DNA from: Halothiobacillus sp.
Lineage (GTDB): Bacteria > Pseudomonadota > Gammaproteobacteria > Halothiobacillales > Halothiobacillaceae
DNA: 64,000 nt
Direction: 5' to 3'
Assembly: GCA_024635755.1 (NCBI GenBank)
Contig: JAGXIF010000033.1
Location: 1 to 64,000, forward strand
Shown: positions 3,786 to 4,931 of the stretch, one piece after another
How positions within the stretch are numbered: the stretch's first letter is position 1
Layout of the letters: each line of letters begins with the position of its first letter
The notes under the pieces: model-generated
The model's input: the letters and a program-made list of their open reading frames with translations, nothing else
What the model was told of the DNA's origin: nothing
Databases searched by the model: none
Position numbers and translations under genes: made by a program

Positions 3786-4028
3786 TTATTGAGGGCCTTC
3801 AAAGTGGTCGACAAATTTTATTTTAAAATCCTCAAAGTTGTCTACTTTTTTGATCTTGAAGTCCTCGAAGTGATCTACGATTTTCCATTTCCCGGGCGAG
3901 TCGGCAAAATTATTTACAACTTTCACATGCAAGTCTGCAAAATGGTCTACGACCTTTACTTTATAGTCTTCGAAGTGGTCGACAAACTTGACTTTTCCGT
4001 AAATGGCTTCGACGTCTGTTTTGCTCAT
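3786..4028 (-). CDS. Small six-repeat protein ((V/I)KxVDHFEDxK repeats); putative 7(1) septoil-knot domain protein
   Basis: ORF to 4040; start at 4028 (MSKTDVEAIYGK) preferred because GAGGGCACTA-ATG gives RBS spacing. Repeats: VKFVDHFEDYK/VKVVDHFADLH/VKVVNNFADSPGK/WKIVDHFEDFK/IKKVDNFEDFK/IKFVDHFEGPQ. Confidence 0.75.
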   Translation of the reverse strand: MSKTDVEAIYGKVKFVDHFEDYKVKVVDHFADLHVKVVNNFADSPGKWKIVDHFEDFKIKKVDNFEDFKIKFVDHFEGPQ

Positions 4029-4082
4029 TAGTGCCCTCATGTTGTTATGCGCACTCTTTTTTTGCTTTATGAGGCGATGTTT

Positions 4083-4931
4083 TTACATGCATTCGCTGCA
4101 GAATATTTCGAACCCCCTGCTCTTGAATTCTTTCCCACACATCAGGCAGTCATTGACAACGAATGAGTCACTGGATTGTGATTCAATTATTCGTTCTTCT
4201 TCTGTTTCTTCTTCATGAGTTACCGGGATTTCAAATTCTTTCAGGGCGGTTGATAATTTGGGGCATAAGTGAATTTTCCGTTTCTTATTTACTCGTTCGC
4301 GAAATTCTTGCCGTAGCCAATCATTGATGTAGCCATTGTTATCGTATGTTGCCCCATAGTCGCTGTCCCTGGATACGATCCATATGTCGGCATTATGCTC
4401 TTTGGCAACATGCACGATCCATTCCCAGTTTATGGAGTCTCCTAGGCTGGTGTCGTTCTTTTTTCTTGGAGGGTATCCTAGAAAGAATCTTTTTCGTGCA
4501 AGTCGACGGGTGCTATACCTTTCTTTGCTGCCTCGATAGAGGTCTGTTCCTTTTTTCTTTTTCTTAAAGAGTCTTTGGAGTGTTTGGTAGACAACGTCGT
4601 TTCGAGACGGCTCTTCCAGGATTCGCTCCATTCTCTGTTTTAGTTTGTTTACTCTTTTCTTGATCTTGTCCTGATCATTTTGGAGCGCTGTTGCTGATTT
4701 GTCGTTTTTCAGAATCCCAGGTATTTGGATGTTTGTTGGTTTTGACAGCCCATTTAGTCCCTCAATGATTGCGGACTGTCGGTTTTTCTTAAACTCCATT
4801 TCGACCTGATCAGTCACGATGAGAACGTCCTTTATTGCCTCAAGGTGGTCGAGGAAGGGAGTTTTTACTTCATTTCGGATTCTATAGAAGTCAAGATATA
4901 TGTTGGTGTCAACAAAAAGAAGCTTTGTCAT
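4083..4931 (-). CDS. PIN-like domain protein (DUF4935-like) with C-terminal zinc ribbon
   Basis: N-terminal FVDTNIYLDFYR, acidic VEMEFKKNRQ, later WIVSRDSDYGATYD typical of PIN folds; C-terminal CX2C-X12-CX2C (CLMCGKEFKSRGFEIFCSEC). Confidence 0.75.
   Translation of the reverse strand: MTKLLFVDTNIYLDFYRIRNEVKTPFLDHLEAIKDVLIVTDQVEMEFKKNRQSAIIEGLNGLSKPTNIQIPGILKNDKSATALQNDQDKIKKRVNKLKQRMERILEEPSRNDVVYQTLQRLFKKKKKGTDLYRGSKERYSTRRLARKRFFLGYPPRKKNDTSLGDSINWEWIVHVAKEHNADIWIVSRDSDYGATYDNNGYINDWLRQEFRERVNKKRKIHLCPKLSTALKEFEIPVTHEEETEEERIIESQSSDSFVVNDCLMCGKEFKSRGFEIFCSECM

What the first reader, a model, noticed from the sequence alone, without database searches (positions are those of the whole stretch)
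3786..4931. Two-gene unit: PIN-like/zinc-ribbon protein followed by the repeat (knot) protein
The genes are co-oriented with a ~50-bp gap, both AT-rich, with nothing else in the island. A candidate nuclease followed by a very small, highly stable-looking protein suggests a toxin/antidote, defence, or RNA-processing module. No such pairing is known to me. Functional pairing is inference from adjacency.
Basis: inference. Interest (0 to 1): 0.8.

Follow-up and report, generated by a model that had tools for sequence, protein, structure and literature searches.

The report
Swappable nuclease-plus-knot cargo behind nrdB
A probable RNA-cutting enzyme and a tiny protein related to the most tangled protein knot known sit side by side in a spot of the genome where related bacteria carry other, defence-like genes, but the two genes are not found together anywhere else we could look, so their partnership is probably incidental.

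Summary
The two genes are real. The larger (4083-4931, minus strand) is an intact PIN_12/DUF4935 protein with conserved acidic residues and a C-terminal zinc ribbon. Comparison with a same-genus genome (G003) delimits a cargo slot, ~3717-4941, between the nrdB terminator and a conserved 49-aa gene. The window's slot holds exactly PIN+knot; relatives carry unrelated AT-rich genes, several matching phage-defence candidates (FRG/PDC-S15, PDC-S47, weak PDC-S42), or a Tn7-like element. The pairing is not conserved: none of 95 knot loci has a PIN homolog nearby, and none of 7 PIN loci has a knot gene. One PIN relative (51%) is an integron gene cassette. Best reading: a defence-type PIN nuclease cargo with an independently mobile knot gene as passenger; a dedicated toxin/antidote pair is unlikely. 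Cytosolic knot genes recur, without statistical support, beside defence genes (a Thoeris operon, a TIR/SLATT cluster, an OLD-type ATPase), which keeps a more novel 'accessory' reading open. Function of either gene is untested.

The parts
4083..4931 (-). PIN_12/DUF4935 protein, 282 aa, candidate metal-dependent ribonuclease
   Evidence: PF16289 E 2e-20 and PF18476 E 3e-13; 1293 relatives; invariant D8, E46, D165, D189, D191 in 53 sequences; AF2 pLDDT 90, best PDB hits are VapC-type PIN domains but at E about 0.1
4089..4148 (-). C-terminal zinc-ribbon motif CLMC...CSEC (residues 262-281) of the PIN protein
   Evidence: translation; Cys motif conserved only among the closest homologs
3786..4028 (-). 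Signal-peptide-less DUF6150-family repeat protein, 80 aa (84 aa if started at 4040), homolog of the 7_1-knotted UU089.1
   Evidence: PDB 8iwa E 8e-9; homologs annotated PF19647; alignments A1, A2; 33-nt DNA period
3717..4941 (.). Variable cargo slot occupied by PIN + knot genes
   Evidence: G003 is collinear with the window at the nrdB terminator (4942-4972) and from 3716 downward, with an unrelated 295-aa ORF between
4950..4971 (-). nrdB intrinsic terminator, left edge of the slot
   Evidence: near-identical copy in G003
3543..3692 (-). Conserved 49-aa small protein gene, right flank of the slot (not cargo)
   Evidence: 33 homologs including self; 90% identical copy at the corresponding place in G003
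4984..6165 (-). nrdB, ribonucleotide reductase small chain, left anchor
   Evidence: PF00268 308 bits; 94-97% identical and followed by different cargo in 7 same-genus genomes
2822..3470 (.). GC-rich dispersed/inverted repeat block beyond the slot
   Evidence: related copies follow the slot in four relatives (G005, G006, G008, G009) and lie beyond the 49-aa gene in G003

Best explanation
The finding is one occupant of a genus-wide exchangeable cargo slot directly behind the nrdB terminator (shown). The PIN gene is the probable active cargo: an intact PIN-type nuclease that cuts RNA, plausibly as an anti-phage effector that slows or kills the infected cell (family and active-site residues shown; RNA cutting and defence inferred). 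The knot gene is a cytosolic, signal-peptide-less copy of a widespread mobile repeat-protein family that has settled behind an unrelated gene, as such copies often do. It may be co-transcribed with PIN (no terminator predicted between them) but is not a conserved dedicated antitoxin or cofactor of this PIN family. The two genes entered this slot together or in successive exchanges, perhaps by recombination in the conserved flanks (inferred).
For: Slot boundaries and a different G003 occupant. Other occupants: Tn7-like TnsA/TnsB elements in G001-G003, FRG/PDC-S15 E 1.5e-56 in G009, PDC-S47 E 9e-22 in G008 and weak PDC-S42 in G003, unassigned AT-rich ORFs in G005 and G006. PIN absent from 10 same-genus and 16 same-family genomes; knot absent from the other 26 genomes of the family. 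PIN relatives are mobile or defence-linked: integron cassette with TIGR02249 integrase and attC in G379, beside a CBASS-type cyclase and effector in G058, near an integrase on an E. coli plasmid. No mutual co-location. Signal-peptide-less knot copies have a co-directional upstream gene in 14 of 17 loci against 37 of 74 for exported copies (one-sided p 0.014, heuristic gene calls), and those upstream genes are unrelated to one another.
Against: Both genes fill exactly one exchanged segment while the other readable occupants are mostly single genes, which fits a two-gene unit. The PIN protein itself matches no PADLOC model.
Confidence: 0.58

Rival explanations
1. Dedicated two-gene toxin/antidote or nuclease/cofactor module: the knot protein binds and restrains (or stabilises) the PIN nuclease.
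For: Tight co-directional spacing without a predicted minus-strand terminator between the genes; both lie within one exchanged segment.
Against: No co-location in 95 knot loci or 7 PIN loci; many more PIN relatives (1293) than knot relatives (28) were found by comparable searches, so most PIN proteins of this family presumably manage without a knot protein; the knot family is mainly exported; the order is nuclease then small gene, and no DNA-binding domain was found in the small protein.
Confidence: 0.1
2. Signal-peptide-less knot proteins are portable accessory parts (stabiliser, scaffold, sensor or decoy) of defence or effector operons in general; PIN + knot is one instance, Thoeris + knot another.
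For: L029: ThsB (E 1.5e-75) - ThsA (E 1.8e-102) - knot; L008: phosphatase - knot - ThsB/TIR - SLATT, with HEC-01A/B upstream; L156: knot - AAA_15/OLD-like gene; copies in phage and prophage contigs L083, L086, L088, L089.
Against: PADLOC-matching neighbours were roughly 5-6 of 62 for signal-peptide-less and about 6 of 116 for exported copies (my estimate from the family lists), not clearly different; three other ThsA loci lack a knot gene; many copies sit by ordinary genes such as a GH16/GT25 enzyme and a MocR-type regulator.
Confidence: 0.2
3. The knot gene is a decayed or fortuitous fragment: an exported protein that lost its signal peptide during an exchange and is carried without function.
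For: Closest homolog P0001 (75% identical) has a signal peptide; single occurrence in the taxonomic family.
Against: Reading frame and repeat pattern intact, plausible ribosome-binding motif, and a start like that of other signal-peptide-less copies in unrelated phyla, so this form is a stable variant.
Confidence: 0.12

Closest known systems
PIN_12 (PF16289) / DUF4935 PIN-domain proteins
   Same: Domain match over cut-off, invariant acidic residues, 60-70% identical relatives including the zinc ribbon
   Different: No difference in kind; here it sits in a defence-type cargo slot with a knot gene behind it
UU089.1 / Q9PR55, the 7_1 (septafoil) knot protein of Ureaplasma (PDB 8IWA; predicted in PMC9278004, crystal structure noted in PMC13352647) and DUF6150 / PF19647
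   Same: Same tandem repeat of about 11 residues (V-D-x-F-x-D-x-K-V-K-x); sequence match E 8e-9
   Different: Distant from UU089.1 in sequence; a homolog studied with it (P73136) forms a 5_1 knot (PMC9278004), so the knot type here is not established; most relatives of the window protein are exported
VapBC-type toxin-antitoxin modules
   Same: PIN-fold protein next to a very small gene
   Different: No DNA-binding antitoxin found, reversed gene order, different and much longer PIN subfamily, no conserved pairing
Defence hot spots and Tn7-like/integron cargo sites
   Same: Fixed core-gene anchor (nrdB), unrelated AT-rich small cargos in relatives, several matching defence-candidate models
   Different: Very small cargos (1-2 genes) between a terminator and a conserved small gene; no integrase or attC in the window's slot

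Membership tests
PIN_12 / DUF4935 nuclease family | Pfam PF16289 score over the gathering cut-off | tested here: met
   74.3 bits against 32
PIN_12 / DUF4935 nuclease family | Conserved acidic active-site residues | tested here: met
   D8, E46, D165, D189, D191 invariant in 53 sequences
PIN_12 / DUF4935 nuclease family | PIN fold | tested here: inconclusive
   Model pLDDT 90; top PDB matches are VapC/PAE2754 PIN proteins, but best E is only 0.08
PIN_12 / DUF4935 nuclease family | Ribonuclease activity | not testable with these tools
   needs an assay
DUF6150 (PF19647) repeat family | Homology and repeat pattern | tested here: met
   28 homologs, all precomputed as PF19647; alignment A1. The Pfam profile itself did not report the window protein, an apparent profile or filter miss
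DUF6150 (PF19647) repeat family | 7_1 knotted backbone (shown for UU089.1) | tested here: inconclusive
   Homology to 8IWA, but the AlphaFold model failed at pLDDT 41
Type II toxin-antitoxin (VapBC-like) | Conserved adjacency of toxin and partner | tested here: not met
Type II toxin-antitoxin (VapBC-like) | Partner neutralises the toxin | not testable with these tools
   needs co-expression
Catalogued anti-phage defence system (PADLOC 2.0.0) | Model match of the cargo genes | tested here: not met
   PIN none; knot only a weak Cyclase match, E 0.007
Integron gene cassette | attC site behind the gene | tested here: not met
   None in 3301-5100, while the same scan finds attC behind the PIN homolog in G379

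The most novel reading that the evidence does not exclude
Signal-peptide-less septafoil-knot proteins are a general, mobile accessory of bacterial immune and effector operons (PIN nuclease here; Thoeris ThsB-ThsA, TIR/SLATT and an OLD-type gene elsewhere), giving the most complex known protein knot family its first functional setting.
Probability: 0.15. Interest if true: 0.85.

Novelty: new member of a known kind. Interest (0 to 1): 0.42.

Why it matters
No function was found in the papers searched for the 7_1-knot family. This locus and its relatives suggest that cytosolic members travel with cargo genes, some of them immune effectors, which can be tested directly. The nrdB slot is a compact site for mining small defence candidates in this genus. 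If the pairing is accidental, as most evidence says, the case warns against reading adjacency in cargo islands as a functional module.

Tried and rejected
AlphaFold of the knot protein failed, so no fold search was run on it. Integron-cassette origin of the window's slot: scanned, no attC. Dedicated pairing: rejected as a conserved feature. Defence enrichment around signal-peptide-less knots: suggestive cases but not clear by counts. A conserved neighbour family of knot genes across distant taxa: none found, mostly matches within close relatives or broad families. PIN in viral contigs with the single protein: none; with an alignment, 3 loci, none with a knot gene. Knot genes in GenBank phages: none. 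Literature on UU089.1, DUF6150, PF19647, or knot plus Thoeris or defence: nothing relevant.

Full report
WHAT IS THERE. Two minus-strand genes lie between nrdB (4984-6165) and a GC-rich repeat block. PIN gene 4083-4931, 282 aa: PF16289 PIN_12 at 74 bits, cut-off 32; 1293 relatives, the best 67% identical over the full length; D8, E46, D165, D189 and D191 invariant among 53 sequences, and a C-terminal Cx2C...Cx2C motif shared by the closest relatives. The AlphaFold model has pLDDT 90, and its nearest solved structures are VapC-type PIN domains, though only at E about 0.1. Small gene 3786-4028 (or 4040): tandem repeats of about 11 residues, visible as a 33-nt DNA period; 28 homologs all annotated PF19647/DUF6150; sequence match E 8e-9 to UU089.1, PDB 8IWA, the protein reported as a 7_1 knot (PMC9278004; crystal structure noted in PMC13352647). 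The window protein could not be modelled, so its knot type is inferred from homology; a homolog in PMC9278004 is 5_1.

A THIRD GENE AND THE SLOT. Directly downstream lies a 49-aa gene (3543-3692) with 32 homologs at 65-80% identity, so the island holds more than two genes. Same-genus genome G003 has a 90% identical copy. G003 gives the layout: nrdB, a roughly 17-kb stretch beginning with Tn7-like genes, a copy of the nrdB terminator, an unrelated 295-aa AT-rich ORF, then sequence orthologous to window 3716 downward including the 49-aa gene. The variable segment in the window is therefore about 3717-4941 and contains exactly PIN and knot. In other relatives the place behind nrdB holds a TnsA/TnsB element (G001, G002), an FRG-domain gene matching PADLOC PDC-S15 at E 1.5e-56 (G009), fragments of a PDC-S47 gene (G008), and two unassigned AT-rich ORFs (G005, G006); the G003 ORF matches PDC-S42 weakly. 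The slot looks like a small-cargo site rich in defence candidates. That the window's cargo is also defensive is inference.

IS THE PAIR A UNIT? The knot family was followed into 80 genome loci and 15 viral loci. A PIN profile built from 120 relatives found no PIN gene in any of them; 76 of the 95 have at least 1.5 kb on both sides. In the other direction, seven PIN loci (G379, G058, three viral contigs of which two are nearly identical, a Pseudoalteromonas plasmid, an E. coli plasmid) contain no knot gene. PIN was found in 3 of 387 genomes of the class including the window's own, and the knot gene in none of the other 26 genomes of the family. The G379 PIN gene is an integron cassette: integron integrase TIGR02249 at 397 bits, and a 70-bp attC right behind the PIN stop codon. 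The G058 PIN lies beside a CBASS-type cyclase (E 3e-81) and an effector. So the PIN family moves as defence-like cargo without knot genes. Limit: the DNA around the 60-70% identical PIN relatives was out of reach.

THE KNOT FAMILY. Most copies carry a signal peptide; 17 of the 95 loci, and the window, carry a form without it, starting like MSK/MAK...DVSKIYGK. These copies have a co-directional upstream gene in 14 of 17 cases against 37 of 74 for exported copies (one-sided p 0.014, heuristic gene calls), but the upstream genes are unrelated: ion channel, phosphatase, GH16/GT25 enzyme, MocR-type regulator, ThsA. Striking single cases: ThsB-ThsA-knot in L029; phosphatase-knot-TIR-SLATT with HEC-01A/B upstream in L008; knot-OLD-like ATPase in L156, an additional copy; phage and prophage contigs L083, L086, L088 and L089. 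PADLOC counts over neighbours do not show a clear excess, and three other ThsA loci lack a knot gene.

VERDICT. The proposed dedicated module is unlikely; a defence-type PIN nuclease cargo accompanied by an independently mobile cytosolic knot gene is the best-supported reading. RNA cutting, defence activity and any physical interaction are untested.

Noticed in passing
L029:8369-10246: ThsB - ThsA (Thoeris) followed by a signal-peptide-less knot gene in a Bacteroidetes MAG; other ThsA loci sampled lack it.
   Followed up: partly
L008:641-6896: HEC-01A/B pair, a phosphatase, a knot gene, a TIR (ThsB-like) and a double SLATT protein in one stretch of a Prolixibacteraceae contig.
   Followed up: partly
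L156:6453-8720: Signal-peptide-less knot gene 166 bp upstream of an AAA_15/OLD-like TOPRIM gene.
   Followed up: partly
L163:3908-4222 (Leptospira weilii plasmid NZ_CP092209.1): A knot-family gene with signal peptide lies inside a phage tail operon, just upstream of a baseplate J gene.
   Followed up: no
L116, L112, L115 after nrdB: Tn7-like element (TnsA-like plus Mu-type transposase) inserted within about 25 bp of the nrdB stop codon in three same-genus genomes.
   Followed up: partly
L119:9562-11583: Integron with a PIN_12 gene as a cassette, with an attC right behind the stop codon, in a distant relative of the class.
   Followed up: yes
window 3543-3692: Widespread uncharacterised 49-aa protein family (MAVKHTPTxEVHKGxKxGxTGCGFDT...HWV...ITCxKNGCKN) without a Pfam model.
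   Followed up: partly
window 69-353, 2822-3470: Dispersed GC-rich repeat family with long inverted arms, present near the same site in relatives.
   Followed up: no
PF19647 model against window 3786-4040: The Pfam DUF6150 profile does not report the window's knot protein although 64-75% identical homologs carry the annotation; profile-based surveys will undercount the family.
   Followed up: partly
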